Source: Diploscapter coronatus
Taxonomy: Eukaryota; Nematoda; Chromadorea; Rhabditida; Rhabditidae
Reading direction: 5' to 3'
DNA: 64,000 bases
Assembly: GCA_964036155.1 (NCBI GenBank)
Contig: OZ038422.1
Span: 22,777,201-22,841,200, forward strand
Shown: one piece after another, positions 20,027-40,324 of the stretch
How positions within the stretch are numbered: the first letter of the stretch is position 1
Layout of the letters: each line of letters begins with the position of its first letter
Position numbers and translations under genes: made by a program
The notes under the pieces: model-generated
The model's input: the letters and a program-made list of their open reading frames with translations, nothing else
What the model was told of the DNA's origin: nothing
The model's database searches: none

Positions 20027-21646
20027 TTACGTCTGGTTTTCGAAAGGCGGTTCAGGCCCGTGGTCGATGTGGTTGTTGACCGTGGCGCGCATCGAGGCGA
20101 TTGCGGCTTCTCGATTGTCAGCTCGGATGATGCCCGTTCCGGAGACGATCACATTCGCGCCTGCTCGAGCCGGGATCTGAAACTTCGATGAAACTGGTAT
20201 CTTTTTTTTTAAAAACAAAGCTTATTCGAAATAATGCTAGTTCTTTTGAATAAAGTAATTTTACGTAGGCTTCAAAACATGTAGCCTTTTGAATAAGCAT
20301 AAAATGCGTTAATTCAAATAGTGTTATTTGTTTTATTTTACCTCAACATTCTGCGGCGTCACGCCTCCATCGACTTGGATATTCAGTTCCGGATACTCCT
20401 GACGCAATCGCTTTACCTGGAAATCAATAAATTACATCTGTTCAAAGAAAATCCAACAATCCAACCTTCTCCATCATGCCATCCATGAATTTCTGCCCGC
20501 CAAATCCAGGTTCCACAGTCATAATTAGTGCGTGATCGATGTTGTTTGCATGTCTGAAAATTTAGTTAATTCTCTAGAAAGGAAGAAATTAGCATACTTC
20601 AACAGAGCATCGACAGGAGTCTTTGGTTTGATCGCCAAGCCAGCCTTCATGTTGTGATTGTGGATCTGAAAGTGGCATTTTCATTTTACCAACAAGCAAA
20701 ATCAATCATGATTCTTCCTAGAATTAATTAAACTTTCAATGAAACAAGAATTATTGCCAAGAAGTAGTAAAGAGAAGCTGGCTCAGTTAAGATTAAAAAA
20801 AAATTCTCTGAAATATTTTCCAAATTTTAGCGCATGTCAATAACAGAAGAAAGAATACTAAATTCTACTTTTTCGACGAGTTCTTTGACAGCCTCGTCGT
20901 TCGGCAGTGCTTCGTAGTGGAAAACGAACAGATTCACGCCAGCTTTTGCCATATTTTCCACCCAGAAACCGGGATCTGATACCTGCAAAATTAAAAGTCA
21001 TTTCAAAAGGGAAGAAACAGTCTCCTGTATTTATATATAGATGACAGGCACCGACAGCTGTATTTGTCAACGGCCTTTCCTTATTTCTCTGCTTTTTCTG
21101 CATTCCCTACCCCTACCTATCCTCATTGACAAATACAGCCGTCTGTAAATAAAGGTTGCCGAAAGAAAATATTACAAACCATGAGATGTGCATCGAAGTA
21201 GGGAGCCGATCCCAGGTCCTTCCTCAAGCATTCGATGACCGGGTGGCCGATTGTCAGGTTCGGCACGAAATGACCGTCCATCACGTCCAAATGCAGCCTG
21301 CAAGTTATTTTATAATGATTATCTTCTTGTTTCTTAGAAAGTCAAACTTTGTAAACGATCCACGGCATGAAACCGTGATTGTATGAATTTATTGAAACAT
21401 TCAAATAATTGTGAATTAGAAAATGAGTGATTTGAGAACAAATAATAGTAATTCTAGAATTGAAAAGTTCACACCACGAATATTTTGGAAAGCTCGTAGT
21501 TCATTAAAGGATTTCTTTTTTGTGAAAATTTTGTAACTTTCTCACCAATCAGCTCCAGCGTGGACCAACTGCTTGCATTCCGCGCCGAGCTGCGCCAAAT
21601 TGGAGTTCAAAATTGACGGGCAGATGATCGCTCGCACTGGGGGCAT
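20027..21646 (-). CDS. rpe-1: Ribulose-phosphate 3-epimerase
   Basis: The enzyme interconverts ribulose 5-phosphate and xylulose 5-phosphate in the non-oxidative pentose phosphate pathway in the cytosol. Seven exons agree in phase: 21546-21646, 21180-21297, 20869-20982, 20598-20665, 20466-20553, 20342-20416 and 20027-20176, giving 237 aa, a normal family length. Diagnostic TIM-barrel motifs are all present: [12 protein letters not shown] (metal-binding Asp and His), [24 protein letters not shown] and [10 protein letters not shown]. The start [16 protein letters not shown] lies about 30 nt after a TTTTTTTTCAG acceptor, as for a trans-spliced message. It follows gos-28 on the same strand; as I recall, the C. 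elegans orthologue F08F8.7 is likewise next to gos-28 (F08F8.8). One intron carries a fold-back element. Confidence 0.95.
21019..21170. mobile_element. Fold-back MITE in an rpe-1 intron
   Basis: The left arm contains CAGCTGTATTTGTCAACGG and the right arm CATTGACAAATACAGCCGTCTG; outer parts pair less well. The core TTATTTCTCTGCTTTTTCTG matches the cores of elements near 8380 and 19145. I see no clear target duplication. Confidence 0.7.
21334..21400 (-). promoter_or_regulatory. Candidate 21U-RNA locus (motif plus predicted RNA)
   Basis: ATGTTTCA on the minus strand (21393-21400) is followed, 36-39 nt downstream, by CGTT, a YRNT whose T at 21354 would be the 5' U. It lies in the first rpe-1 intron, on the coding strand. 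Confidence 0.4.
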
Positions 21647-22606
21647 TTTTGACGAGAATTCGATGCTTCAAATCTGAAAAAAAACAATCAAATTAGAAGA
21701 AAATCAATATTCCACCACCAAAATATTCATTGGGAAATGAACACCACATTGTTGTTACAATTTCAGATCGCTTCTCACCAAATATGCCCTTTATTCCGTA
21801 ATTCGATAACTCATTTTTGTGATAAAAAAAACCTGTTCTTCTACTGCAAAAAAATCATCGACTCCTTCCCAGGAAAACAAACGAATGAATAATAAATAAT
21901 CATGACATACAAATCGCGAAAAATACAAACAAAATCAGAAGATCAGAAGTAAGCATAATTTCAACACATTTTCGAAAAGCTATTTTTAGCTCACCTCTGA
22001 TAATGATTCAAATAGAAGGGAAATAGTTCGTTAGAAATCTTCGAATAAAATTCATCTTTCAGAAAATAAAATTATCGTAATATTTTGCTCATCAAAACCA
22101 CATGTAATACAAATAAATATCACAGAAGGAGTACAAGATAAATGATAATTGGAAGCGAAAGAATGAATGAAAAATTCAGAGAAAATAGTTACACAGTACA
22201 TTTAAAATTGAAACTACTGTAACCACTTTACAAAAATTCCTATATAGTAATGTTCGTCACAAATAACCCCGGATAGAATAAATAATTGCTACTGTAATTC
22301 TATATACACTTATGAATTTTTCGACTAATAAATTATGTTTCGATGCAAGTCACGAGAGAGTTTCAAAAATATGGAATCGCCGTTTGAAGATTCTTCAAAC
22401 AGAAATGAATGAATAAAATTGTGAATAGCTTGAATCTCACATTTCAAAAATGAGTGGATTCAAATATTCAAAAATGATCACGATACTGAAGTTTAAAAAT
22501 GATACGGAAAAGAGAATGCTGAATTTTAAATCCCAATATTTCTACTTACCGACCGAATGAATGTGAGGCAGAGTGATTGGCAGAGGGCTGAGCGAATGAG
22601 TCATTC

Positions 22607-24117
22607 TCAAGCAATGACATACCAAATGGTGAAGATGAGACAGGCAGAAATCACTCCGGCCATGATGATCGCGTCCTTGCGCTTCTTCGTTTGGATCTTC
22701 AGCATCAGATTGTTGATCATCGGGTATTTCTCTGCAAAAAAAAGCGCTTTAATAAAGAAATGCTCCAACGATATTTCTTCTTCAAAGTGGAAAACCCAAG
22801 AAAATTTAATAAGCATTTGTTGTGTTCATCCTTGAAAAAATAAATGAAATCGTAAGTGAATAAGACCTTTCATAAGAATATTCGGTATTTAAAATTCGAA
22901 AAAAAAACTCTTACTCGTCATTTGATCGAGTTTCTTGCTGATTCCCCGCATATTGTAGCCCTGTCGGGTGAGATTCTCCTTGGTGGACATGGCAATGCTG
23001 AAACATAGCCATAAAAATCGAATCTCCCGAATAAGCCCGCCTGATCTGTTCATCTAACAGCCTATCGCAACTGTTGATGTGATCGTTCTCCTTCAGATAC
23101 AGATCAGACGCCTTCGCGCGGTTGTTCAGACACGTCAGATTCTCCGAGGACTGGTTCCCATTGCTCGTGCTGCTCGTCGTCAGGAACTCTCTGAATTATA
23201 TTGCACCTTATTCATTTTGGATATGTTTCAAAACAATAGCTTAAAGTGAATGCATCAGAAGTTTTCCATTGGTTTGTAGATTTTTGTGTAAACCAAAAAA
23301 TCAATTTGTGTACCTGTCCAACTGAGCCTTGACGTTCTCCTTAGCTCGTCTGAATTCAGTGCCGTAATCTCTGAGAATGTCGCGATGGCGTCTGAGAGTA
23401 TGCTGCACGGCAGGATTCGAGGCCCACGACGAGGAGGAGGTGCCTGACGAGCCGACCACGTCCGACATCTAGCGATAAAAATTTATGTTAGAAGCTATCG
23501 ACGAAAATATTTAGGGATTTTATAAATTAAAAAATAAAGCATGGAAATAATAAGTTTCGTAGAACATTTGTGAAAAGTCTTGGAATCTGAAATTTCTTTC
23601 TTAAAAACGGAATAAAAATACCTCATCATTGATGTGAGTGAGTTTGGAGACGAGTTGCTCGATTTCAGAGGTCAGCGTCTCGTACATCGATTGACGAGCA
23701 GACAGGGAACGCTCCTCGCTGTCGAAACGGCCTGAAAATGAAATAATATATTTTGAGGTATTTGAGAATAGTGTCCGAGCTAAAATTCCTAATGGTTGAT
23801 ATAAACTCTACATACCAGATAATCTATTCACTTGAAATTTGTTAGTTTTGTATGTCGATTGACTTGATAAGCCTACAAAGTCTAGTAGTGATTTTCAAAA
23901 ATAGCCGTTTTTGTTCAGCCATTTCTCTAGCAAGCTGTTTGTTCGTCAAAAAATCTAAAAACGAAAAAAACTACCTGAAGAGTGAGAAATGAGTTTGTTG
24001 AGCGATACCAACTTTACGTCGATGCTGTTTTCCGCGGCACGAGCGCGTTTGCGTAGATCTGAAATGCTTTAATTTTTCAGCTAAAAATAGCTTCCTACCT
24101 TCCCACATGTCAGACAT
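22607..24117 (-). CDS. gos-28: Golgi Qb-SNARE GOS-28 (GOSR1)
   Basis: A tail-anchored SNARE for ER-Golgi and intra-Golgi vesicle fusion. Seven exons agree in phase: 24099-24117, 23975-24058, 23622-23731, 23314-23468, 23059-23190, 22915-22997 and 22607-22731, giving 235 aa against about 250 in the family. Recognisable features are the N-terminal DLRKRARAAEN, the LRRHRDILRDY segment typical of GOSR1, the SNARE-motif stretch IAMSTKENLTRQG...MRGISKKL, and a C-terminal anchor IIMAGVISACLIFTIWYVIA. A few residues normally found before IAMSTKEN appear to be missing at the 60-nt fifth intron. A TTTTTTTCAG acceptor lies about 28 nt before the ATG. It sits about 1 kb downstream of npp-10 and 1 kb upstream of rpe-1 on the same strand. 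Confidence 0.93.
23223..23290 (+). promoter_or_regulatory. Candidate 21U-RNA locus
   Basis: ATGTTTCA (23223-23230) is followed by CATT at 23267-23270, so the predicted 5' U is 40 nt after the motif. It is in a gos-28 intron, antisense to the gene. Confidence 0.4.
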
Positions 24118-25095
24118 CGTCGTGGATTGATTAAATTGTAATGTTTCTGAAAAAAATCATTTTCATTAAAAAACTAAAGAGTTCGAGATATTTTATGGTC
24201 TAAAACCATATTTCTGATTTTTTCTTCAAAACTAAAACTTCAACTTTATTGAACTCGCTGACTTTGAAATGGGAATTAGAGACATTCGGACCACGTTTTA
24301 AATCATAATATAGGGAATAGATACGCTACATAAGCATTACAAATAAAATAAAAGAATAGGGAATAATAGAGTATCGGAAAGTTTTCGAAAAATAAAGATG
24401 GCTTAGAAAACTGGGATGGAGAGGACCTGAAATTAAATAAGAAAAGAAACCCCAAGATTCCATGAAAATTGTTGATTGCTGATTTACAGAAAATTCAGAA
24501 GAAAAGCCAATAAGTTACCGGATTGAGGCGATTCAAAGAAATAACGAATTGATTGAATGAAAGTAATGGAGAACACGAAACGTCTAGAAATTACTCGCAA
24601 AAAGAAAAATATCAGGTTACCATTTTGCATACCGAAATCCATTTGTAAATGTATAAAAATCGAAACTGATTTTCGGTATGCAACATGATAAAACGATACA
24701 ATTCCTTCAGAAACATTACACGTCAGAGAGAGAGAGAGACATATCTAAAAATAAAGCGATTAAACTTAACCTAGCAAAGATTGATAAATTAACTCAACGA
24801 AAATTCGAAAAAAAAAACAGATAACGATAATGAAATAGCGAGGGAAAAAGACAAGAAAAGGCTGGCGAGTTTTGGAGATATAAAGGGAATTTAGAGAGGA
24901 AGATTCAAAAAAGTCGAATAGTTTAACTCTGATCATAATCCTTTTAAAGTATGTTTTAGTCTATTCAAAAAAGGAAGAAAAGGAATAAATAAAAGGGCAA
25001 CTAAATTGCCTGATTTCTGAAAATAACTAATGATCGAAGATAAACCATCCGTTAAAAATAAAAATTGATATCTACCGCAGTGTCCTTTTGGTAGA
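24118..25095. other. Spacer between npp-10 and gos-28
   Basis: Just under 1 kb of AT-rich sequence between the npp-10 stop and the gos-28 start, on a shared strand. It holds a hairpin (24625-24683) and a short GA run near 24727. The gap is longer than the usual 100 bp of a C. elegans operon but within the range seen in other worms. Confidence 0.6.
24625..24683. repeat. Hairpin in the npp-10/gos-28 spacer
   Basis: TTGCATACCGAAATC (24625-24639) and GATTTTCGGTATGCAA (24668-24683) are complementary apart from one extra base and enclose a loop of about 28 nt. It could be a small transposon or an RNA element in the intercistronic region. Confidence 0.65.
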
Positions 25096-28000
25096 TTAGT
25101 CAAAAAGAGCCTGGTCGGCCAATTTGCCCATGAGCATGAGGTTGGTTGCGGACTCGAAGGGCAGGGAGAAGTCGTGTTCGTCCAGCAGGGAGGCCTTGAT
25201 CTCGTACAGCTCGCGGCTGATCGTCGAAATGCAGTGTCTGAAAATGGAATAAATTGCTGAATTGGGAAGCACTTCAGATTGTTTAATTGATTTCGGAAGA
25301 TAATTTCCAAATTACCAATTTCTTGAAACATATTTTTCGAAGCATGGATAAAGTTTGTCAGATATAAAGTCATACTTTTGAATGGGCGACTTGAGCCACA
25401 CAGCCGAGCGGACTTTCGCATCGATCGAGCGAATCAAATAGAGAATGCGCTCTTCCTGAAACATACCAAATAAAAATCTCAAAAACCTGCATATTTTTTC
25501 CTAGCTTTCGCCAATGAATTTGTGAAACTCATGGAAAAATCGTCTCATCTCAATCTTTCCTAGAATTTGTTGAAAATAAATCAGGTACCAATAAAACATC
25601 TAAGATTTGAATTTAATACTCCATGTATAGACCCAGAAAACGTTTTTTGTCTTCAAAACTGTTTAAAGCCTACATCAATCATATTCTGATCCTGCTGTCC
25701 TTGTTCAGTCCCGTCCTGATTCAGCTCTTCTGGATGTGCAGCTGCCTTCAACTGGCTGTAGTCCACGAACAGTTGACCGTAGTCAGAGAAACCCTGAATA
25801 TGATCATTTGAAGGGATCATCCAATATTATCTTGATCAAACAGAAAGTTCTTTTTTTAATTGTGCACATCTTTTACTCAAATTTCTGTGAATATGCACGC
25901 CCAACGGTCATCAATTGTAAATAAAAATAAATGCGATATTTGACCGTTTTGCGCATGTCCGCAGACATTAGCATAAATGCCGCGCAATCTAACAAACGAA
26001 CTTTTTGTTTGACTAGGACAATGTGACAACATTACAACCTTTCAGCATGAGGAAATAGCATGCAGAGATATGAGAAGTTTGGGGAAGGATAAAAAAATTC
26101 CATTTTTGCATGCTACTTTTTCATGGTGTAAGATTGTAATGCAGTAGTAAAGTATCCAAGTTGATATTTTAAAGAATCAAAGGGATCCCTCGAAATACCT
26201 TGATTTTATCAGCGACATTCTCGATCATTCTCGAGTAGCGCTTCAACTCGGCTGCTTTCAAATAGAAAATGCAATCTGGAGCCACCTGAAATTCAAATTT
26301 TTTGCTAATGGCAAATTTCAAATGCAGTGAAATAGTCTGTAAAAGACAATGGAAAAGTACCTCCTTAACATAGAGCTCCCTCGCCAGTTCATAGTCCTCA
26401 GCTTGAATGGCATATTCAAAGGCTTTGGCTGATTCGCCTCTGAAACATATCTTATTTTTCTTCTTTCAAGAAAATAGAGCTGTGAGTACTTGTGTCCCAA
26501 ATGCTACTTTTAACTTTCTTTTCTCTTGTTTGAGACCAAAATACTCGCAGACAAAATAAAATTACCTCGCTCTAGCCACAATGCACCTTGCCTCAGCCAG
26601 CCAGGCAGGTCTTGCGTGGGGGCAGAATTTGTTGATTTCGTCTTCCAGCGACAGGTTCAGCTCGATCTCATAGGCTTGGCGCACGATCAGATCACGCATC
26701 GCTTTTTCTCGCCTGAAAAAAATGAGTGAAACTTAGATTTCCCTTGATTTTAATGCATTGAACAAATTTCAATAATTTCCTTGAGCTTAACGTTTGGGTA
26801 TTTAGATAAAAGTAGATAAAATGGGCATTAACTTTTCAAGATTTGATGATCATGTCACTTCAATTTCTAATAACGCCTTAGCATTTCTTATCACTCTTGT
26901 AATACAAATTGCAATTCATCTGAAAATGAAATAAGAAATGTATGTTTCAAAAGAACCATAATAAGAGATGTTTCAAACAAGTACCGTTGCGATATCCATA
27001 ACAATAGATCTTATAAAATATATTCGCAAGGAAAGTTTCTTCAGTAGTTTTATATAAATTCAGTCTATCCGAGACGAAATGATAATAACGCGGAGAAGAT
27101 CGGTCATCGAGAGCGAGAATGTTAGAGAAGGTAGAGAACTATTCATTAGGCACGTTATTTCGTCGAGAAAATTTCAAGCTCCTGAGTGCCCTTTTATGCT
27201 CGAATAATCGCTTCTTTGCGCGCTGATAATATCGTCCCAGATGTTTTCAACTATATCATAAAGCATGTGACTCACTGCAGATGATTGTCGAGATGACTGA
27301 GGACGAAGAGAGCGGGTCCGACTGCCTTATGGGACTCTAGTTGGACTGCGAACTGTCTGTGGAGTCTGTCGAGGTTCTCGGCAGCCATCGAGTTGTAGCC
27401 GTACGTCCGCAGCAGAGACCACACGAACCAGCTGCAAACAGAACGATCTCTACCTTCACATTGTAATGTTTACAAAAAAAAATCTGATAAACAAATCACG
27501 AGAATCGATCACCCAAAATGAATACATTTTTGCAAGAGAGCGGAGCCTGGAACTCGAAATAAAGCATCAATTTACCTCAAGCACAGATCATTGATAGAAT
27601 TGGACGATAGGTACATGAGCGCATCGAGGACAGTTTCGATTCTGTGTGCCGGATTGCAGGCCAAGTGGATCAGCTGGAAATATTGATTTTTTAAAATCAA
27701 TATTCTAGTTTTTCAGAAATTCTCTACCTCTTCATAGAAGTGTCCGTCGGAGTTGGCAGCCTGTCCAGCAGCCACTTCATTCCGATATCTCTCGTACGCA
27801 TCTTCCAGCGATCCTGCGCCACGCGTCCACCACAAATGGAGGCCGAGGCACTGAAAATAGAGATTTCATTTTCACTCAAAATAATTCCATGATTCATTTG
27901 ATATTCGATCAATATCAAAAGATAACTAAAATCAAGACTTTTCTCTGCAAAGAGGTAAGGAAAGAAACGGCAGAGTTGTTTGGAGAAAGAATGGCACATC

Positions 28001-31000
28001 TGGAATTTGAAGAATATTTTCATTTTAAAAAATTACCTGTTTCCAGTCGAGCCCCTCCATGCAATTGACGGTTTCCTTCTTACTCCTGACGGTCCTCTCC
28101 AAACTCGTTCTGCCGGCCAAAATCATGTAGACCTTCAGCACGTCCTTGTCCATGTACTGCAGAGTGTCAGACTTCGACCAGTGATCAAGCTGAAATTCGT
28201 TGAAAAAGCATTTTAGTGGGTCAACTTGTTCGAAATACAAGATTCAGTCCATCAGTAACTATTAAAAACTAGTTGATATTTTTACAAAAGTTGAAACATA
28301 TTTAGTTTTTTTTTTTCAATTTTCGAAACTTTATCAAAATCTGTATGTTTACTTGTGCCTGCATTTCCTTCCGATTGATGTCAGGACAGATGGGATAGGC
28401 AGCCAAGAAGGAGGCCAAATGAGTCAGTCTCTCCTCTTCAGCCTTTCTGATCGCCTCTTCCAAATCCCCAGAACACATCGCTTTCCAAACACTCGCTCCT
28501 GAAAATTCCGAAAGTTTAAGTTTATTCAGAAAATGAGGACAACTCAACGCTAATCGACAATTTTTAAACTAATTCTTCTTTTATGGAAAACTTGTAATAT
28601 AGCATCATTTTGTAAAATATTCTAGGAAATATTTATCTGAATCATTATTCAAGTTCAAAGTATCAACGATTTTAAGACATTTTGAAACATATTGCAAAAT
28701 CTTTAGTATATCTCTTGCAAAAATACCTCTAGCATTTGATTTTTCGATGCTGTGATTGAGCGTGGCATGTTGGATCTCCTGCCTCATCCAGTGGCCGAGA
28801 CGCTCTGCGCGAACACTCCTCCAGGGGCCTTTCTTGTCGAACGGAAGCAAGGCCGAGCACAACGAGAAAGTGCGCGAGTGCAGGGTCGAATTGTTGTCTG
28901 AAAATTAGCTTTCTTGAAACATAAAAGCTGTGTTCTAAAATTTTTGAGTTATTCGGAAAGTGATAGAGGAAGAATAACTATTTTATCAATGATATCGAAT
29001 TATAAGAATAGGAAAAATCTAATCCAATTGCATTGTAACATATTTCAACTTGTAAAACCTTCTACCTCTAGCAGTATTTGCGTATTCCTTGAGAAGAACG
29101 GAGAAGCAGTCCTGTTTGAAGACGGTCTGCGGTACGAAAGAGTGTTTCTCCATCGAGTTCTGAATCGGTCTGGCCGTAGTTTCTGTCGTGCGATTCCACG
29201 TCGAATTGGACAGCGCCTTCAGCATCATGTCGTACATCGCTGCCTAAACTTTCATTTTTCTTACTTGAAATCGACTTTTTACAATCGTTTTTGAAAATCA
29301 CATTGATAAGACTGAAAACAAGAATCGTATGTTTCAGTTTCCTATCAAATATAATTTCGATCTTATTGCAAGATGAGCGTTTTTTACTCACTTGCTGTAA
29401 AGAAAAATCCCCGAATTCGCAAGATTCGACTTGTATACTTGTATAAAAAAAGTGTATTTTCTAAGGAAGAAAAAAGATATGCTCTTTTCCTCTCTCAATA
29501 GAGAAGACATACTTTTTCTGCGGGTCGAATTTTGAGATGTCTAAAAATCGCCGACCTTGTTCGTATCGGAATTCATGTGAATGTGCCCGATGGCGACCTC
29601 GTTGCTGTCAGGCTGCCTGCTCACGACGAACCTCTGCCCGACCTGCACCCCAGCCACACTGCCCCACCCGATCCGGGCTGCGTTTCCCATCGCCACTCCG
29701 AAGTCCATTCGACGACTCGCGTTGTAGCTCACTGAGTTACGGGCCTGCAATTTGTTATTAGATTTTATAAGAAAATGTAGGTTTCTAATTTGTATGAAAA
29801 ACGGGATAGATGAGGTTTTGATACCATTTGATACCAACTTTTTCGAAGTGGAATTTTAGTCAAAAATCAAATTCGAAGCTCTTAAATCCTCTTATCAAAA
29901 GTAGAACACCTTTTCGACAAAACGAGCGAGAGAAGAATGAAGTAGCATTTGTTGAAAATTGCTGGTATTATATTCAGATGTTTTCTTCTCGCACTTTCAT
30001 ATTTTCTTCCAAACAAAAAATCGTTTCTTTACCATATATCCTCCAGTGAACTGATGGACGGGCGCGATCTGTTTCAGATTTCTTTCCTTCGAAATGGCCA
30101 ACTTCTGAGCGGCCATCGCATGCAGGAGAATTTCACTGAAAATTCAACAAATTTGTAGAATTTCCCAGAAATATTCTGATCTAGGCAGACTTTCAGTCAA
30201 ACTGAAGAAATATAGGGATGGAGATACCAAAAAAAAATGTTGGCCTAAGCGATGCCTAGGTCTGAAAGTAGTGCATACGTTTGTGTGTAGAGATCCTCGA
30301 TTTCCTCAAGTTTCGGTTTCTTTTCCTGGGGAGGAATGATGGCTTCGAGTTGCTTGAGGAAGTCATAGGATTTGGGAGCCGAGTTTGGGTCGACAGACAG
30401 GGGCTGGCGGTGACGGCCCAGGTCTTCCAGTTTGGCGAGACCGCGCTGTAAATTTGCAACTTAAAAATCAAATTCGTTCATTTTATTGGAACTCTGAAAA
30501 TTATTAGCTGGACTCATTGCAGTTGGCGATTTTTTCGATGGAATAAAACAGATAAGAGCATTCTTGAAACATGAGATTCAACTTTATGAAAATCTACCTT
30601 CATCTGATTTTCCATCAAAATCTCATCGTCCTGCCCGCTTTCCATCGGCTCGTTGTTCACCAGAGATTCCAGAACCTGCAAAATTGAAAATTTGTATCGA
30701 ATCAGGAAAAAACACGAACCATCAAATCGGCCCCTTCCCCGTCGGGAAAGTACTGCGCCTGCATCTGAAATTCCATCAGACAGTCCGCATTCGCGTCCTT
30801 TTTCGAGGTGATCTGCAAATTAAAAGAAAATGAAATTTTAGAAGAGGGTCAAACATAATTCGACAATCAAGCATTCCTAGACATTTTCATTGTCAAATAT
30901 CATCTATTTGAAGCATAGTTGGAAAATCAAATATTGCAATTTTTGAATATGTTTCAAACATTAGATATTTACTTGAGTGTTATCAATATTCCGGTTTATA

Positions 31001-34000
31001 TAAGTATTTTATAGACAAAAAGTGTACCTTAGCCCGTTGAACTTTGTTCTGAACTTCCCTCTCCTCGAAAGACTTCTCCAATTCATCAGTTGTAGGCACA
31101 TCTCCCTGTGCTCCATTCTGCGCAGCCAGAATTCGCCCCTTCTTCACGCGTCCCACCAGTTGATTCTCCACGTCTTCGTCGTCCTGAATTCCCAAATTCA
31201 GTAATTCAGTACTCGCTGCGCTATGTCCTTCTTTAACGTATGAAAATATTTTTAAATCTCACTTCTTCATGCTGTTTTCTATCTGAAAATAGCATAAAAT
31301 AGAGGAAAAGATTTTTGCAGTTAAAAGACAGGACGAAATGATACCGTAATTCAAGCACTTTGTAAATCACAGTATACAGATATTGGGGAATTGCGATTTG
31401 AGAAAAAACGTCGTATTGAAATTTAACTAATATCTCATAAGTTTCAACTATTCTAAATAAAAGATCGCCTCATAACATGTTATGTTAGTCCAGTTTCTAA
31501 TACGTAAAGCCCAAGCTCTTTAAAAAGTTGAACTAGATGCCTAATAAGTAATGAAGTGATGAGTCTCAATTAAAACTTTATTCTCAAAAAACCATGATTC
31601 TTAAACAAGGAAATATAATTCTTTAAAAATACTGATAAATTAGCATGAAAAGATACAACTGACGAAGAAAATCCCACAAGAAGTTTCAGAAGTGTCCACC
31701 TTCGATTTGGCTGATCTTTTCACCATAGGGGTATTTCAGTACGTAGATAACGGATCCGATATCAAAAAGTTCTGACATTGAGTCTTAGGCTCGAAACTTT
31801 GCTTGAAAATATGGCGAAATAGCGTGTGAAAATGCGAGTAAATGAAATGCCCAAATTTGAATACACTATTTGGCGGACGTTTCACTCCTCTTTTCTGCTA
31901 AGATGGCAGGTTTTGCATTGGATGGCCATTAAAAACCAAATACTAAACCTAGGGCTCAACATCAGCACTTTTTGACTTCGGATCAGCCATCTACGCACTG
32001 AAATACCCCTATAGTGAAGAAATCAGCAAAATCGGAGGAGGGCATCCTCCTGAAACTTCCTTTTGTCAGCATAAATGAGCTAAACTTAGAATGGGTAAAA
32101 TATAAATAGATCAAAAAAAAATATTAGTCGTTGAGATACAAAATTTCGTGAAACATAAGTAAATTTTGGTAAAAATTGAGCAAAAAATATTTTGTTTACT
32201 TTTGTAGCTCAAAGACGACAAAATAAATGGAATGAATTTAGAAAGTACAAGAATCAATGTCAACTTATTAATAAAAAATAAGTAAAAGAAACAAGAAAAG
32301 GGCTTGGGCTTCATACGTCACTTTCACTTTTTCGTTGTTTTATACGGTAATACGGTAGTTATCAGTTTGATGTTGTTGGGCTATTTTAGAAAATACATGA
32401 CATACTGACATGAAAAATAATGTAAGTATTTTGAAAGGAAAAAATCTCATCATGGCTTACATGTCAGCGTCATTGTATGTTATGTTTTCGGCTAACTGCA
32501 AACTTCACACATTCTTAACGGTATATTTTTGAAAAAAAAAATTAGTGTAGTTCAACCGAGCGAGGTTTACAATGAGCCAGTGTTTCCAAATAGCCTTTTG
32601 CTGATGTTGTTTATGGACTAACCGAGAGGCCGTATTTACTGAAGTGTTCGACGCGGAAGACCCACGAGCCAGTCAGCGGCCGGTAGTCCTTGAACTCTGC
32701 ACTCATCTTCGAGGTCTGACGCTCCAGGAACTCGCGCCATCCAATCTCTGTCAATTCGATCGGATCCTGAAGCCAAAGTTGGAATATTTCAATCAGAGAA
32801 TTTATTTTTAAATGAATATTTTGATACGTTTTACTGTTACTACAATCTAAAGAAATAGTATGCAGTGATGGTATTAGAGAAAAGAAATATATCTTTACAC
32901 ACTAAACACTATTCAGGTTTCAAAATTGAAACATGGTAAAATAGTTTGAAACCTAATATCTTAGTTTCCATCAAAATTTTCTCAATTTATATTATCAAGG
33001 TTCGACTTCAGTTGAAGAGCGTTGTTGAAATTCTTCATTTTATATAATTTCTCTGAAACCTATATCAAAAATCGGGTTTCTTATTTACCTTAACGTATTC
33101 CCCAGTGACCCTGTTCCTCTTCCAGACTCGTTCGAGAGTCACTTCCGCAGGCCGATTCAGACCCTCTCCCACAGGCGGCTTCTTCGCCTCGTCCGGATAC
33201 ACGGTCACTTCTTTGTGACGGAAAACGACCAGCTGAAAATATGAACGTTATTTCTTTTGGTCTTTGAAAAAGGGGTAACCTAGAAAAGTGTTAAGAAACA
33301 GTAAATCACAATCATTCTGAATTGAAGATGTTGTAATTCTCTTTAACCTTTCTCGTTTTTACAATGGAAAAGTAAAAACAAAAACTATGAAAAGAGAAAA
33401 TTTTGAATCTTCTTCAATTTAAAACTAAGGGAAAACATTGGATATTCTAAGAATAGCTGACCTCATCGAGAACGATGTCCTTGATTTGAATGGGTCCAGG
33501 CCAGTAGACAGTTCCATAGCTGGCTCTGCCGATGGTCAATCCGTCAGGCAGGGAGACAGCTCCGTTATGAATCATCGACTTCATCTGCTCGATCGACGGC
33601 TCGCAGAAGTAGTCCGGTTGCAGCAGGCGGACACCACAAGCCTGTGCGTCTTCTTAAAATATGTTTCATTTTATTCGGATAAAAAATCGCTAAATTTTGA
33701 TGTCATTCGAAGACAGACATTTTAGATAAGTTTCAAATTTCCCTATTAGAAATAAGGTTTCGCGCCGACTTGATAATCTTTAAAACAATTTATACTAGTT
33801 CAAAAAAGCAAAAATTTTGTTAAACTTCTTGAACCTTTTTAGCACGCGTCATCATCAAAAACATCGTATCAGGTAGGTTTCAAAGTTTCCCTATTAGAAA
33901 GCAAGCTTCGGAGGAAAACGATAATCTTTAAAACAATTTATAATAACGAGAAATTATGAATTTCTAAAGGCCCACCTCTTCTGATACTTCCTCCCAATAG

Positions 34001-37000
34001 ATTATCGTGCGAGATATGACTGTCCCTGCTGCTGGTGGTGCGTTCTGCAGAGGCATGTGACTGAGTGGACGCAGTGGACTCAGCATTGGCGGCAGGCGAT
34101 CTGCGCCCTGCCGACAGGGACGCAGAGGCCGAGGCCGAAGTGTCGTCCAGATTGAGGACGGGCGGCTCGGCATCGCGAAGGCGTTGGGCACGACGAATCG
34201 CATTCGATACGGGGGACAGCGTGTGGGGACTGGAAATTGTGAATTGTTATTATAAGTTTCAAAACTATCTCATTTATTAAAAAAACTACCATTTACAATA
34301 TTGTGCAAAGTGATGATTTAACATATCAAAAAATCGTAGAAAATAAGAAAGATAAATTCTACGATATTCCGATTCTTCTTCAACTAGTCACACAAATTGA
34401 TTCTTTGCATCAACTTCCTATTATTTTTGTCCAAAACTCGTGATTTCGGATAAGAAAGAATGATGATGAATGGTTGTTTGAAGAAGTTAAAATTTAATCA
34501 CATCTATGCCGAATTTCTATGTTTCAACTAATCTACAAACAAAATTACTTACACATCCTCTTGGATGTTGGATGGATTGTCGGTGTTGGGCCTGAGCGGC
34601 TGGATGGCATCTGGATCTGCCTGCTCGTCCGCCATCTGCCCAGTCTTTCTGCCCCTCGCTCCGCCGCCAGTCGAATTCATGCTAGAGTCCAGACCGTTCA
34701 GCACTGACAAATCCAGGTACTGAAATTAGAAAGATAAGTTTCAGATAAATTAGAAAAGGAGCAATTTATAAAGGATTTGATAAAACTTTTCTTTAGCTGT
34801 GACGAAAATAGTTGAAATAACTTCGAAATTTGAAAATAAAACGTAGGTGTATCAGGGGTCTGTGGAATTCCGGAATCTCTTTCCTTTCTCCATGAGCTCA
34901 CCCTCTAAACTCCGGCGAGACTTTTTTCTCAGAGATCTAGACTCGAAATTCCGTGTAAGGCGAGTAGAAAGGGAGAGAAATGGTGAATGAGCATGGAAAA
35001 AGGAAAGAAAAGTCCGAATTACCGGCTCTCAACTATGCACACTCCTACTAGATACTCTATGAATAGCTCAATTTTCCCAAGCATAAATTTAAATTGTCCA
35101 AATGGCTCAAGGTTGAAATATAAAAGAAGAAGAGGAGAATCAATGTTTACCTTGACATTGGTGGTAGTCTTCTTGAGTATGGAAGGGAGTTGATTGCCTC
35201 CCGGAGAGAGAGCGGTTGCCGAGCTGTTGAGCATGGATGCATCCTTGGAGGAGATGAAGGTGGTGGACTGCGGTCGAGTGCCGATGCCCTTGCCGAGGGT
35301 GGGTGGACGCACAATCGACGTGTATTTGAGGTCTTCGGCACTCCCCACAGGGATCACTGACGCCGCACGGAATGACTTCTCCATTATCTGAATTTTTAAA
35401 ACAATTTTATAATGCTACTGAGAAGTTCTAATATTAAGGATGCTCTTATTGAAATTTTAGATTAGCAAATATTCTGTCGTAAAGTATAGATATCGAATCT
35501 ATAGTTCGCAATCTCCGCCCACTTTGTGAAGCAAAAACCAGTTAAATCTATTGTTCTCGCTAATTAGGCAATTTTATGTTTTTTCTTCTACAAATACTCG
35601 AATGAATATCCTGGGAAGATAATTTTACCGAAAAATGGTGTGAAAAAAGTTACGGAATTGTTCTGGAACTGGTTCAAAATTAATCGTTAACGAAATTTCG
35701 AGAAAAATTAACTTCTGAAAGTGTACAGTTCTCAGGGCAGTCCTGATTCAATGGTGTAGGTTTTAAAACGCTATCCTCAATTTTGCCAAACCACTTGCGG
35801 GCTCTAATTGAATCCGTCAAATTTCATCAAAACCCATAAAACTTTTAAACATATGATTCAAGTTTCTAAAATGCCCTACCTTCGGTGGAAGGACGCCCAT
35901 GAATTGCGACTTGACGAGCTGGTTGCCGGACAGATTGGCGGCTCGTTTGTCCTGAAACATACCAAAATCAGTTATTTCTTCCAACAAAAAAAAGCTTACA
36001 TCAGCAGAATCGAGTCCATTCTTTGCTTTCGTTGGACTGAGAACTGCAGACATTAGGGGCGAGTTTTTCTCTGCTCCAGCAGCATTAGACACAGTCAGCG
36101 GTTTGTCTTTTTCCTCGGCCAGTCTGTTCATCTTCGATGCCATGAAACGCAGTTGACGCTGGGCACTGAAAATTCAATTTACTTTGAATTTAGAAGAATG
36201 TGTTATCTAAAATTAGTTTTCATTCCAACTTACTCGCAACTTCTTGAGTTTCGGCAATAGAATAGTTTATTAAAAAAGAAATAACAAAAACTCTGGAGCA
36301 TATATATTAGCAAGGAAAACCTATTCAAGTTTTTATTCTGTATAAAATTTTGACTAACCTAGCAGGATTAGGCTTTTCAGGAGTGTCATCTGCCGCGGAG
36401 ATGATCTTGAGCAGAGGCGAGTCTCCATAGGGGGAAGCGGCCAGCTGAGCCTCGATGAGCTTCATCTCCAACTGCGTCTGGTTGACATCCGATCCGAGGA
36501 TGATGGGCGTCTGCTGCGTGGCCACTTGGGCCGTCATTGGAATTGCGCCGAAACCTGAATTTCCAAAATTAAAACAATTATTTTGACAGGTTGCAGGGAA
36601 TTCATAAAAGAATGATGCTAAGATCGATGGATAATATTACAAGCTCAAAAGGTCAAATGAAACGAGTATTGAATTTAATGGCTTTATCTACTGAACTTAT
36701 GATAAAAACTTGTTATTTTTGCAATTAGAGGGAAGTGAAAAAAGGCCGCATTTATTATTTCTTCAAATCATCTCTAAAAAACCGACCAGACTGTGCCTGC
36801 TGTTGCTGCTGATTGACCCCCATTCCGGAGAATAGGCCTCCTCCCGTGCCCGTGTTCTGTGCGGGTTGAGTCGATCCGAACAGACCGCCGCCCGTCGATG
36901 GCTGATTCGAGCCAAACAGACCACCGCCTCCTGAAAATCGTCGCATACATATACGACAAATTCTCGAAAAACAAACCAGCAGTTCCAGTGTTGGATCCGA

Positions 37001-39678
37001 AAAATCCACCGCCAGCAGGCTTGGCTGCATTGCTTCCGAACAGGCCTCCTCCCGTGCTTGCAGCGGCGCCTAAAGATGTTGGTTTTTCAAAGTACTGGAA
37101 AAATTTCTTTAGAATTGTTTCATTATGGGTTCACAAAATTGATATTTTTCTTCTTACTTATGCGACAAATTTAGAAATTACGCGTCTCAACAAGTATAAT
37201 TTTGCGTTTTATCCACATATTTTTGAATTCCTCTCATTCTCCTTACCGAAGTTGGAATTAGTGTTGCTGCCAAAATTGAATGCAGATCCAGTGCTGGTGG
37301 CAGGCTTGCCGAATAGGCCACCCCCAGTGGATGCCTGATTCGAGCCGAACAGACCGCCTCCTGTCGTGTTCTGGGCAGGCTGGCCGAACGATGTCTGAAG
37401 TCGATACATTAAATCGTCTACTTTTCAAAAATGTAACGCTTTGAAGTCAAGTTCTAAAATTTAGAAATCTTCGTCGGTTTTCTTACTATCTGCATAAAAT
37501 TCGTCATGACCAGAACGCGAAGCTGTGAAAATACAATTCTCAAAACTCATGTTTAATCATTTGATGTATGTTTCTTTCCTAGATCATATTCTGCCAAACT
37601 CACTCCAGTGCTAGATCCGAAGAGTCCTCCAGTGGTTCCAGTCTGTGCAGGCTGCTGTCCAAATGACGTGTTGCTCTGGCCCATATTTCCGAACAGACCA
37701 CCGGACTGCTGCTGCTGTTGCTGCTGGGTCGTCTGAAAGAGAACATCCATTTTACTTCAAGAAGAATCTCTTACTCCGCTGCCTCCGAAAAGGCCTCCAC
37801 TTGGCTGTGCGGGAGTCGTTCCGAATGTGCTCGTGCCTGTTGAACCGAACAATCCGCCTCCTGAAAAGAAGCGCATTTTTTAAGTTGATGGTTTTCAGAA
37901 TTGATGCAGAATATGAATAAGCATGAAGAGGTGGTTTATGATATGTTTCATTCTGCAACTTCATCTCCCTTTCGTGATATTTTACCTGTAGCAGGTTTAG
38001 AAGCGAAGAGGGACGAGGTACCGGCAGTTGCATTGGTGGAAGAGCCGAAAATGGAGCCGGTCGTAGTGCTCGATGTCGCGCCGAAATTAGATGTTCCTGA
38101 AAGAAAAGATCCTTTTCGTTTTAGAATCAGCCCGTCAATCATCTATATTTTAACAATGATCATTTCACGCTCCCATATTCTTTTCAATAAATTAATTACG
38201 TTATTAATGCAGAGTGCACCTCTTCGTTCTGGCTTTACTTCTTTCTTTCGGAAAAAGAAAAGGAAAAGGAGAGAAGAGTAAAGCCAAGAAGAAAATGGTT
38301 ATATAATTTCTCCCAAAACACGATAAATAGTACATGGAAAAGAAAAAAAGCAAAAAAATAGCGTTTAAGGAAAGATTACGCAGTCGCGAAGAAATCTACT
38401 CTGCATAAATCGCGTTGTGGATTCCTTGAAGAGGATGGGAGAGTGCATTTCTGCATTTGGATGCATACCAGTGGATCCAAAGAGCGAGGATTTCTGCTGG
38501 GTGGAACCGAAGAGTCCACCCCCAGTCGTGCCAGCTGTCGTGCCGATTTGTGCAGAGGTCGAGCCGAACAGGCCGCCACCAGATGTCGAAGTGGGGGCTT
38601 TGCGACCTGCGATGTAGTCATCGATACGCAGCTCCTGAATTTGAAAAATTAGAATTTTTAGCCTGGCACTTTATTCATGAAGAGGAAAAGAGATTTCTCA
38701 ATTTTCAACCCATTTCACTAATAAATCCTGAAATGTCGGATGTTTCTCGTTCACCCACCTCGAGACTCTTGCCCTCGTACTGTTTCATGGCCGTGATGCA
38801 GATGTGTTTGGTGTTGATGTTCTGCGTAGTGCCGTTCTTGGCCATTGTGTCCGAGGCGATTACGGGGTCGAATTTGATGGTCGTTCCATTCGGGGCAGAG
38901 GCAGCAGACGAACCTGAAAAGAGTCATTTCCATTTGTATTTTCAGCTTCATATTCCTGTATACTAAGTTGCGAAGAATTTTTACAGAATTATATTATCTG
39001 ATAATTCTGTGTGATGAATTCCAATTTTCTTGTTAGCATTTTTATTTTCCATACCAAAAAGTCCCCCAGAAGAGGTAGCAGTGGACGAGCCGAACAGTCC
39101 GCCGCCTCCCGACGTGGCGACTCCCGAGGAGGTGCCGAATGCCGAGGACTGCTGCTGCGTGCTGCCGAACAGAGACGGACGATTCTGGCCGAACATCGAC
39201 GTGTTTGTCTGGTTCTGGGCTGCACCTGCAAAAATAAACATTATTTTTGAACAAAATATGAGGGCATCATTCCTCTTCGGTTAAACGAGAAAATGCAGGA
39301 AACGTGTGTTGAGACATGATGATAATTCGTGCAAGTTTCATAAAGAATCTAGTGGAAGAAACAGGAATGAGAATCTTTTTTCTCAAAGGATATATTCTTG
39401 TCCCATCTACTGTCAGAAGTTCTTTTTCTTCTGCACTGACCAAAGAGAGAGGAAGTCTGCTGCGGCTGTTGGGTGCTGCCGAAGAGAGAGGAAGTGGCAG
39501 GACGGCCGAAGACAGAAGAAGTCGACTGGCCGACTGCAGAGGACGTGGCTGGCTGCCCGAACACAGAGCCGCCGCTCTGCGTGTTCCCGAACAGACCCGT
39601 CCCCGTGCGACCCGCCCCGAATGCGCTCCCCGATGTGCCAGATGTCGAACCAAATGCTCCTGATGGCTTGCCGAACAT
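25096..39678 (-). CDS. npp-10: Nuclear pore protein Nup98-Nup96 precursor
   Basis: One 14.6-kb gene encodes the fused precursor that cuts itself into mobile Nup98 and the scaffold Nup96 of the Y-complex. The start MFGKPSGAFGSTSG opens a long FG/GLFG repeat region (39678 to about 36780). It is split by a GLEBS motif for Rae1 binding in exon 38759-38913 (GTTIKFDP, NTKHICITAMKQYEGKSLE), followed by ELRIDDYIAGRK. The autoproteolytic domain occupies exons 33462-33652, 33089-33232 and 32623-32766; the cleavage site HF/S is at 32638-32646, followed by KYGL. The Nup96 alpha-helical domain follows from 31184 down to the stop at 25096-25098 in about 20 short exons. The ATG directly abuts a CTTGTTCAG acceptor, as if trans-spliced. 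The introns hold transposons and the ATGTTTCA cluster. Confidence 0.95.
25266..25331 (-). promoter_or_regulatory. Candidate 21U-RNA locus
   Basis: Minus-strand ATGTTTCA (25324-25331) is followed by CAAT with its T at 25286, 38 nt downstream. It lies in the last npp-10 intron. Confidence 0.4.
26942..27008 (+). promoter_or_regulatory. Candidate 21U-RNA locus (paired motifs)
   Basis: ATGTTTCA at 26942-26949 is followed by CGTT with its T at 26988, 39 nt downstream. A second ATGTTTCA lies at 26968-26975 on the same strand. Both are in an npp-10 intron, antisense to the gene. Confidence 0.4.
27070..27170. mobile_element. Small fold-back element in an npp-10 intron
   Basis: GAGACGAAATGATAATAACG on the left pairs with CGTTATTTCGTCGAG on the right, apart from a short gap. 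The interior is purine-rich (GAGAGCGAGAATGTTAGAGAAGG in two parts), like the complement of the other element cores. Confidence 0.55.
28234..28299 (-). promoter_or_regulatory. Candidate 21U-RNA locus
   Basis: Minus-strand ATGTTTCA (28292-28299) is followed by TACT with its T at 28254, 38 nt downstream, in an npp-10 intron. Confidence 0.4.
28624..28690 (-). promoter_or_regulatory. Candidate 21U-RNA locus
   Basis: Minus-strand ATGTTTCA (28683-28690) is followed by TAAT with its T at 28644, 39 nt downstream, in an npp-10 intron. Confidence 0.4.
30949..31015 (+). promoter_or_regulatory. Candidate 21U-RNA locus
   Basis: ATATGTTTCA ends at 30956 and CGGT follows with its T at 30995, 39 nt downstream, in an npp-10 intron and antisense to the gene. 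Confidence 0.4.
31672..32070. mobile_element. Non-autonomous transposon with long inverted repeats
   Basis: About 400 bp within the npp-10 intron between the Nup98 and Nup96 parts. The arms exceed 100 bp: left GAAGTTTCAG...GATCTTTTCACCATAGGGG, continuing GTATTTCAGTACGTAGAT; right the diverged complement, including ATACCCCTATAGTGAAG and CTGAAACTTC. There is no coding frame. Inner TAGGGG...CCCCTA ends with TA on both sides suggest a Tc1/mariner-like unit, possibly nested in a longer element. Confidence 0.75.
33661..33727 (+). promoter_or_regulatory. Candidate 21U-RNA locus
   Basis: ATGTTTCA (33661-33668) is followed by CATT with its T at 33707, 39 nt downstream, just inside an npp-10 intron and antisense to the gene. 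Confidence 0.4.
33732..33947. repeat. Direct repeat of about 65 bp in an npp-10 intron
   Basis: Two copies, 33732-33799 and 33876-33947, share GTTTCAAA, TTTCCCTATTAGAAA and GATAATCTTTAAAACAATTT with a diverged middle. They are 144 bp apart and in the same orientation, so a local duplication is the simplest reading. Each copy carries a GTTTCAAA. Confidence 0.8.
37487..37522 (-). other. Possible 36-nt cassette exon in npp-10
   Basis: A TTTTCACAG acceptor and a GTAAGA donor flank 36 nt that read LRVLVMTNFMQI in the frame of the neighbouring exons (phase 0 on both sides). The peptide is hydrophobic and unlike the surrounding FG repeats. Alternatively it is chance. Confidence 0.35.
38207..38406. 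mobile_element. Fold-back element in an npp-10 intron
   Basis: The outer arms ATGCAGAGT...CTCTTCG and CGAAGAAATCTACTCTGCAT pair imperfectly. Inside them TTCTGGCTTTACTTCT pairs with AGAGTAAAGCCAAGAAG across a core of GGAAAAAGAAAAGGAAAAGG. No target duplication was identified. Confidence 0.6.
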
Positions 39679-40324
39679 CTGAACAAGGAAAATGAATTCG
39701 AAGAAAATTAGGAAATTCGCGAGGAAAAATACGAGTTCCAGAACAGCAAGACAAGATCTCTAGAATAAGGAATTTACGAACCGGAGAAAAATTGGGAAAA
39801 TTTAAAAAAAAAAAAAAAAATGTCAAGGGGAGGAAATCGTACAGAGAAAATTCAAAAGCCGTGGAGCAAAAGTAGAAAGTGTTAGGACTTTAGGTAGAAG
39901 ACGAGTGGGGTTTTTTTATGGTCAAAAATTCAAAAGTTTAAAGATTCCTGGCCAGATGCATCAATTCACCACGCAGAAGCAGAAATTCAAGTTTCCACGC
40001 CGAGAAAATCGATAAATTCGAAAATTGTGGGAAACGGGATTTCGAAATGTGACGGGTGGAATGTAATACCGGACTTTTATAGGAGAACGGTTTGCCGGGT
40101 CATGTGACGCGCATCACAGGCGTTTTTGCTAATCAGACGCGACAAAAATACGACAACATTCGAAAAATCCCACGGAAATACGTCACAAAAGAAAATGGTG
40201 CAACGCGACAACCACTGCACCAAATTGCGTAATGCAGGGCGTAGTGGGGAACGATGAAGCTGCTTTATTAGTATTTTTAGTTCTTTGGGTTTTCGGGATT
40301 TATTTTATTTTCGCGATTTCCAGA
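39679..40324. promoter_or_regulatory. Divergent promoter region of npp-10 and sqv-3
   Basis: The two genes are transcribed away from each other across about 650 bp. I see no TATA box. Both start codons lie at or within 2 nt of an acceptor-like CAG, so the true transcription starts may be further out. Confidence 0.5.

What the first reader, a model, noticed from the sequence alone, without database searches (positions are those of the whole stretch)
21393..37950. Cluster of 21U-RNA (piRNA) promoter-like motifs in the introns of rpe-1, gos-28 and npp-10
Reading by eye, ATGTTTCA on either strand occurs about 20 times between 21.4 and 38 kb, none in the first 21 kb, and only two or three times after 38 kb. 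By base composition I would expect about one per 17 kb. It differs by one base from CTGTTTCA, the known upstream motif of C. elegans 21U-RNAs. Four copies are also splice acceptors; about 15 are not. Among those, a YRNT places a T 38-40 nt downstream in nine (for example 21354, 23270, 25286, 26988, 28254, 28644, 30995, 33707), whereas chance would give about a third of that. Both strands are used. piRNA genes inside introns of active genes have been described for Plectus, so this may be such a cluster.
Basis: partly seen in the sequence, partly recalled or inferred. Interest (0 to 1): 0.9.

Follow-up and report, generated by a model that had tools for sequence, protein, structure and literature searches.

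The report
Likely intronic piRNA promoter cluster
In what appears to be an all-female, single-chromosome roundworm, the introns of a nuclear-pore gene and its neighbours hold a dense group of short signals that probably switch on tiny genome-guarding RNAs, and most of them carry a version of the signal that is not male-biased in C. elegans.

Summary
ATGTTTCA occurs 22 times in the window, 20 of them between 21,393 and 37,950. Four are splice acceptors; I judge the other 16 non-coding, eight per strand. Genome-wide it occurs 23,369 times against 7,064 for its reversed control. The C. elegans consensus CTGTTTCA is barely above control: 8,173 against 7,394.

Best reading: a cluster of dispersed, Pristionchus-type ("P-type") type-I piRNA promoters. 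A YRNT with T 46 nt from the motif's first base (motif G at -44, as in C. elegans) is the top offset of 85 in the window (6 of 17) and in held-out sequence (8 of 43, one tie). Of 16 non-acceptor motifs 13 are intact on the divergent homologue, against 58% of control octamers (P 0.048). A Piwi-clade gene is present.

The genome fits Diploscapter; D. pachys is already reported as P-type (PMC6436959), so the kind is known. Less expected: only A-started motif forms are enriched, not those with the C that marks male piRNAs in C. elegans. No small-RNA data were available, so expression is inferred. The downstream pausing signature was not established.

The parts
21393..21400 (-). Ruby-type core motif ATGTTTCA; YRNT at offset 46
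   Evidence: intact on C2
21334..21354 (-). predicted 21U-RNA
   Evidence: YRNT at offset 46; expression not tested
23223..23230 (+). core motif; YRNT at offset 47 (T at 23270)
   Evidence: intact on C2
25324..25331 (-). core motif; YRNT at offset 45 (T at 25286)
   Evidence: intact on C2
26942..26949 (+). core motif; YRNT at offset 46
   Evidence: intact on C2
26988..27008 (+). predicted 21U-RNA
   Evidence: YRNT at offset 46
26968..26975 (+). core motif, no YRNT at offsets 45-47
   Evidence: intact on C2
28292..28299 (-). core motif; YRNT at offset 45 (T at 28254)
   Evidence: intact on C2
28683..28690 (-). core motif; YRNT at offset 46; C2 allele reads ACGTTTCA
28624..28644 (-). predicted 21U-RNA
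   Evidence: YRNT at offset 46
28915..28922 (-). core motif just upstream of a likely acceptor; YRNT at offset 45 (T at 28877); C2 allele reads ATATTTCA
29329..29336 (+). core motif, followed by G but antisense to the host gene; no YRNT at 45-47
30565..30572 (-). core motif, judged intronic (least certain); no YRNT at 45-47
30949..30956 (+). core motif; YRNT at offset 46
30995..31015 (+). predicted 21U-RNA
   Evidence: YRNT at offset 46
32090..32110 (-). predicted 21U-RNA
   Evidence: YRNT at offset 46
32927..32934 (-). core motif; no YRNT at 45-47
33661..33668 (+). core motif; YRNT at offset 46; present on C2 after a 2-base shift
33707..33727 (+). predicted 21U-RNA
   Evidence: YRNT at offset 46
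34519..34526 (+). core motif; no YRNT at 45-47; C2 allele reads ATGTTTAA
37943..37950 (+). core motif; no YRNT at 45-47; present on C2 after a 2-base shift
22999..23006 (-). octamer that is a splice acceptor of the gos-28-like gene, not counted as a promoter
25457..25464 (-). octamer that is a splice acceptor; differs on C2
26441..26448 (-). octamer that is a splice acceptor
35953..35960 (-). octamer that is a splice acceptor
24933..39760 (-). host gene: Nup98-96 (npp-10-like), GLFG repeats and autopeptidase domain; ends approximate
   Evidence: Pfam PF04096 and PDB Nup98-96 matches to the frame at 32614-32901; open frames
22607..23807 (-). host gene: GOS-28-like SNARE exons; approximate
   Evidence: open frames; name from recall of GOSR1; the two pieces given to Pfam had no hit
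21126..21341 (-). host gene: ribulose-phosphate 3-epimerase (rpe-1-like), part
   Evidence: Pfam PF00834

Best explanation
Most of the 16 non-acceptor ATGTTTCA copies are core (Ruby) motifs of type-I piRNA transcription units of the dispersed P-type, embedded on both strands in introns of a co-oriented gene group (npp-10-like, gos-28-like, rpe-1-like). In the model from C. elegans, SNPC-4 and its partners bind the motif, RNA polymerase II starts at a YR dinucleotide about 42 nt downstream, makes a short capped precursor, and the 21-nt RNA that begins with U two bases further in is loaded into PRG-1. Shown here: motif, spacing preference, location, enrichment and presence of a Piwi-clade gene. 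Inferred: SNAPc-type binding, transcription, 21U-RNAs and Piwi loading. Six of the 15 cluster sites not followed by G have the exact C. elegans spacing and are the likeliest active ones; others may use nearby offsets or be inactive.
For: 20 of 22 motif copies in the cluster; top octamers of the stretch; 3.3 times the reversed control genome-wide, and ATGTTTCAAA 5,574 against 970. YRNT with T at offset 46: 6 of 17 in the window (P 0.0013) and 8 of 43 outside it (P 0.009), rank 1 of 85 offsets in both (one tie in the second); 0 of 11 at copies followed by G. Offset 46 puts the motif G at -44, the commonest position in C. elegans (PMC3597512, passage). On the homologous chromosome 13 of 16 non-acceptor motifs are intact against 357 of 615 permuted octamers outside rough exons (P 0.048), while the predicted 21U stretch is no better conserved than the flanks (0.866). 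Piwi-clade Argonaute on C1, best PDB match Siwi at 6.9e-26. D. pachys is described as P-type (section 18 of PMC6436959).
Against: No small-RNA reads. The GC drop expected downstream is absent over 60 sites (0.333 in the 20 bases from the U, 0.327 in the next 10); the 14 sites with exact spacing show a small dip (0.300 to 0.250) that random draws of 14 from the 60 match 16.5% of the time. In the held-out set the wider 45-47 window is not outstanding (15 of 43; other triples mean 9.1, maximum 19), and 3 of 6 held-out copies followed by G have a YRNT there (mean 1.1, maximum 3). Over all 71 sites another offset reaches 13 against 14 at offset 46. The conservation test is marginal, motif identity (0.945) is only slightly above the spacer (0.924), and the C2 stretch has eight copies with no counterpart on C1, so turnover is high. 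Some neighbouring sites share overlapping contexts. The second cluster lies by a cadherin and a HECT gene; the cadherin is not an obvious germline gene.
Confidence: 0.85

Rival explanations
1. The octamer is an intronic splicing signal, an extended splice-acceptor sequence (TATGTTTCAG) that is simply common in introns.
For: Four of 20 copies are acceptors.
Against: Eight of the 16 other copies are antisense to the host genes; of the 20 cluster copies 12 are followed by A and 5 by G; ATGTTTCAAA, not followed by G, is more enriched genome-wide (5.7 times its control) than the octamer (3.3 times).
Confidence: 0.04
2. The octamer is a binding site of another factor (for example a forkhead-type enhancer element) in the introns of npp-10.
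For: Forkhead proteins bind a CTGTTTCA probe in vitro in C. elegans (work of Cecere et al. as told in PMC3597512, passage).
Against: The YRNT preference at one fixed offset and the about 8.8-fold local density spread over three genes are not expected of an enhancer element.
Confidence: 0.06
3. The motifs are a by-product of a dispersed repeat carrying the octamer.
For: A dispersed repeat lies at 29437-29548 in an npp-10 intron, with 38 other places found (40 of 203 candidates scored).
Against: Among the contexts of 71 sites the only long matches are three pairs of neighbouring sites whose contexts overlap on the same DNA; the rest are short matches of 17-23 bases. No motif lies inside that repeat.
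Confidence: 0.02
4. Former piRNA loci now mostly decayed and silent.
For: Only 6 of 15 cluster sites not followed by G have exact spacing; in P. [quoted passage not shown]
Against: Motifs somewhat better kept between haplotypes than control octamers; a congener is reported with P-type piRNAs.
Confidence: 0.12

Closest known systems
P-type (Pristionchus-type) intronic piRNA loci, incl. Diploscapter pachys (Beltran et al. 2019, PMC6436959)
   Same: Ruby-type motif, dispersed through the genome, inside introns, about 42 nt upstream of a predicted 21U
   Different: Only A-started motif forms are enriched here; downstream pausing signature not established in this small sample; the paper's motif logos are figures that I could not see
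C. elegans type-I 21U-RNA genes (Ruby motif CTGTTTCA)
   Same: GTTTCA core, G at -44, YR start two bases before the U
   Different: C. elegans loci are clustered in H3K27me3 domains of chromosome IV and most male loci have a 5' C; here introns and 5' A
C. elegans oogenesis-type 21UR-2502 promoter (ATGTTTCA; Billi et al. 2013, PMC3597512, passage)
   Same: Identical octamer
   Different: C. elegans female loci as a class show no first-base bias (PMC7884074, passage); here A dominates

Membership tests
Type-I (Ruby-motif) piRNA genes | GTTTC-containing core motif enriched over background | tested here: met
Type-I (Ruby-motif) piRNA genes | YRNT with T at the C. elegans distance (motif G at -44) | tested here: met
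   14 of 60 sites not followed by G, top offset; 46 of 60 lack it at the exact offset
Type-I (Ruby-motif) piRNA genes | Piwi (PRG-1) in the genome | tested here: met
   Piwi-clade fragment; orthology to PRG-1 not tested by a tree
Type-I (Ruby-motif) piRNA genes | 21-nt 5'-U RNAs and capped precursors at the sites | not testable with these tools
   no small-RNA data
Type-I (Ruby-motif) piRNA genes | SNPC-4 / PRDE-1 binding | not testable with these tools
   no ChIP data; the genes themselves were not looked for
P-type organisation | Loci inside introns of protein-coding genes | tested here: met
   16 of 20 cluster copies judged non-coding, nearly all intronic, 8 per strand; gene limits set by hand; genome-wide fraction not tested
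P-type organisation | Host genes germline-expressed / H3K36me3 | not testable with these tools
   no expression or chromatin data; a cadherin gene lies at the second cluster
P-type organisation | High-then-low melting temperature downstream of the start (pausing signature) | tested here: inconclusive
   GC only, not Tm; no drop over 60 sites, small non-significant dip in 14
Diploscapter origin | One pair of divergent chromosomes, about 170 Mb diploid, clade V | tested here: met
   against PMC5483258 and PMC9071541 (passages); haplotypes differ more here (7-17% by block) than the 5.7% mean in print, and no named match to the species was found

The most novel reading that the evidence does not exclude
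In this all-female lineage the piRNA promoter repertoire has moved to a 5'-A motif (ANGTTTCA), free of the male bias that a 5' C gives in C. elegans, because selection for the male (SNPC-1.3-dependent) programme is gone. In the cluster A-started NNGTTTCA forms occur 32 times (acceptors included) and C-, G- and T-started forms 2, 3 and 3; genome-wide CTGTTTCA is barely above control.
Probability: 0.25. Interest if true: 0.7.

Novelty: new member of a known kind. Interest (0 to 1): 0.5.

Why it matters
It gives concrete, testable 21U positions in what is probably a parthenogenetic, single-chromosome nematode. It also offers a natural experiment: without males or sperm, does the motif base that marks male piRNAs in C. 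elegans disappear? The two divergent haplotypes allow selection on promoters and on piRNA sequences to be measured within one genome.

Tried and rejected
Splice-acceptor origin was rejected because half of the non-acceptor copies are antisense and the form not followed by G is the more enriched one. A repeat-borne origin was rejected by comparing 71 site contexts with each other. A GC-based pausing signature was looked for and not established. One-base variants: AAGTTTCA (7 seen, 1.7 expected), AGGTTTCA (4, 0.9) and ATGATTCA (5, 1.6) are enriched in the cluster. At offset 46, A[ACG]GTTTCA gives 9 of 54 (P 0.019, but only rank 5 of 85 offsets), ATGATTCA 1 of 15, CNGTTTCA 4 of 34 (P 0.23), T- and G-started forms 9 of 84 (P 0.11); TTGTTTCA alone gives 4 of 23, so a minor T form is not excluded. 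A protein search with the open frame at 24933-25421 (-) gave nothing. Rfam at gathering thresholds and ARAGORN found nothing in the window. Rows dropped: sites within 115 bases of a sequence end and duplicate contexts were left out of the spacing counts; L007 and L008 therefore added none.

It also said that GC does not fall in the 14 exact-spacing sites; there is a small dip. For these the confidence in the best explanation went from 0.86 to 0.85.

Full report
What is there. ATGTTTCA occurs 22 times on both strands of the 64-kb window, 20 of them between 21,393 and 37,950. A second-order model of the 21-38 kb stretch expects 1.5 (a fifth-order one 7.7), and TATGTTTC and ATGTTTCA are its two most over-represented octamers among those seen at least five times. 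The host genes are on the minus strand. A Nup98-96 gene was recognised by its autopeptidase domain (Pfam PF04096, E 1.2e-9; PDB Nup98-96, E 1.3e-11) and by GLFG repeats in the open frames. A ribulose-phosphate 3-epimerase was recognised by PF00834 (E 5.9e-12). A GOS-28-like SNARE lies between them and is named from recall; the two pieces given to Pfam had no hit. By my reading of frames and splice sites four octamers (22999, 25457, 26441, 35953) are splice acceptors and 16 are non-coding, eight per strand. Gene limits were set by hand; 21393 may lie between genes and 30565 is the least certain.

Which genome. The window lies on C1 (87.7 Mb) of an assembly with C2 (82.0 Mb) and a 13.4-kb third contig. 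The window aligns along nearly its whole length with C2, block by block at 83-93% identity. The 4,000 of 13,378 bases read from the third contig hold open frames that I recognise as mitochondrial; the COX3 search gave Cruznema tripartitum (86%) as the closest named entry, with two closer unnamed ones (120 of 7,370 hits listed, no Diploscapter name among the names shown). Diploscapter coronatus is described as 170 Mb diploid, 2n = 2, 5.7% heterozygous on average and parthenogenetic (PMC5483258, abstract and passages). A review names D. pachys, D. coronatus and Parascaris univalens as having a single chromosome pair (PMC9071541, passages). I infer Diploscapter, most likely coronatus; no direct name match proves it.

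Genome-wide counts. ATGTTTCA 23,369 against 7,064 for the pattern read backwards; ATGTTTCAAA 5,574 against 970; CTGTTTCA 8,173 against 7,394. The genome mean is one per 7.3 kb; the cluster has one per 0.83 kb. A second group lies within 20 kb left of the window, over stretches with cadherin and HECT domains.

Spacing. In C. elegans the motif G is commonest at -44 from the U (PMC3597512, passage), and Beltran et al. report a motif peak at 42 nt (PMC6436959, passage). I scored YRNT at each offset from the motif's first base. Of 71 distinct sites on C1 (window, 60 kb each side, and stretches chosen for ATGTTTCAAA), 60 are not followed by G; 14 of these have a YRNT with T at offset 46 against a background of 0.074 per offset (P 9e-5), the top of 80 offsets; the 11 followed by G have none. 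Over all 71 sites offset 46 still leads (14), with another offset at 13. In the held-out set the wider 45-47 window is not outstanding: 15 of 43 against a mean of 9.1 and a maximum of 19 for other triples, and 3 of 6 copies followed by G have a YRNT there. Offset 46 places the motif G at -44 exactly.

Allelic comparison. Of the 20 cluster copies a plain alignment finds 14 identical on C2; at two more (33661, 37943) the motif is present after a two-base shift. Among the 16 non-acceptor copies 13 are intact, against 357 of 615 permuted octamers outside rough exons (P 0.048). Identity is 0.945 in the motif (four of seven mismatches come from the two shifts), 0.924 in the spacer, 0.866 in the predicted 21U, 0.881 after it and 0.859 upstream. 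Both window copies outside the cluster are changed on C2; the 70-kb C2 stretch holds 24 copies, eight of them without a counterpart on C1. This fits mildly constrained promoters with freely evolving piRNA sequence and high turnover, but the test is marginal.

First base. In the cluster A-started NNGTTTCA forms number 32 (AT 20, AA 7, AG 4, AC 1; acceptors included), C forms 2, G forms 3, T forms 3; the rest of the window scaled to the same length gives about 3.2, 2.5, 2.2 and 4.7 (sums mine). In C. elegans canonical motifs with a 5' C precede 77% of male and 21% of female 21U-RNAs (PMC3597512, section 9), changing C to A sustains expression through oogenesis (passage), and female loci show no first-base bias (PMC7884074, passage). 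A motif with A only in an all-female lineage is what loss of the male class could leave. It could equally be an older trait of the lineage; no sexual relative could be examined here. Searches for Diploscapter with piRNA (6 of 6 papers listed), for piRNA, parthenogenetic, nematode, Ruby motif and SNPC-1.3 (20 of 78 listed) and for adenine, oogenesis and parthenogenesis terms (10 of 89 listed) showed no title or abstract start that makes this link. Figures, including the published motif logos, are not held.

Machinery. Five Argonaute-like stretches were fetched and two were compared with the PDB: one (C1:54142601-54143500) matches Piwi-clade structures first (Siwi 6.9e-26; Argonaute-1 only at 6.8e-6), and a piece of another matches Argonaute-2. 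PRG-1 orthology is likely, not proved. SNPC-4, PRDE-1 and SNPC-1.3 were not looked for.

Against. Over the 60 sites GC does not fall downstream (0.333 in the 20 bases from the U, 0.327 in the next 10); in the 14 with exact spacing it dips from 0.300 to 0.250, which random draws of 14 match in 16.5% of cases. P-type species are said to have the stronger pausing signals (PMC6436959, sections 13, part 1 of 2, and 18). With so few sites, and many possibly inactive (20% of motifs in predicted active domains gave 21U-RNAs in P. pacificus, passage), this does not decide. No small-RNA data were available.

Verdict. A real, non-random cluster, best read as P-type type-I piRNA loci, a kind already reported for a Diploscapter species. 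The new element is the first-base preference and its possible tie to the loss of males.

Noticed in passing
window 29437-29548: A short dispersed repeat in an npp-10 intron; 38 other distinct places on C1 and C2 among the 44 matches (40 of 203 candidates scored). Three of these places match on both strands, which suggests a palindromic, MITE-like element.
   Followed up: no
window 21000-38000: AAGTTTCA (7) and AGGTTTCA (4) are also enriched in the cluster, so the true motif may be ANGTTTCA.
   Followed up: partly
G000 C1:22757201-22777200 (L026, L027): Second group of ATGTTTCA over stretches with cadherin and HECT domains just left of the window.
   Followed up: partly
L024, about 6648 (+) and 6713 (-): Two motif copies facing each other 65 bases apart.
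   Followed up: no
window 21126-39760: npp-10-, gos-28- and rpe-1-like genes lie head to tail on one strand, as in a nematode operon; trans-splicing not examined.
   Followed up: no
window 18127-18390 (+) and 40638-40955 (+): Flanking genes: a Ribonuc_2-5A (KEN-type) domain and a glycosyltransferase 7 N-terminal domain.
   Followed up: no
C2 about 25918 of the joined stretch (L017): A motif copy on C2 in a stretch unaligned to the window, a haplotype-specific candidate.
   Followed up: no
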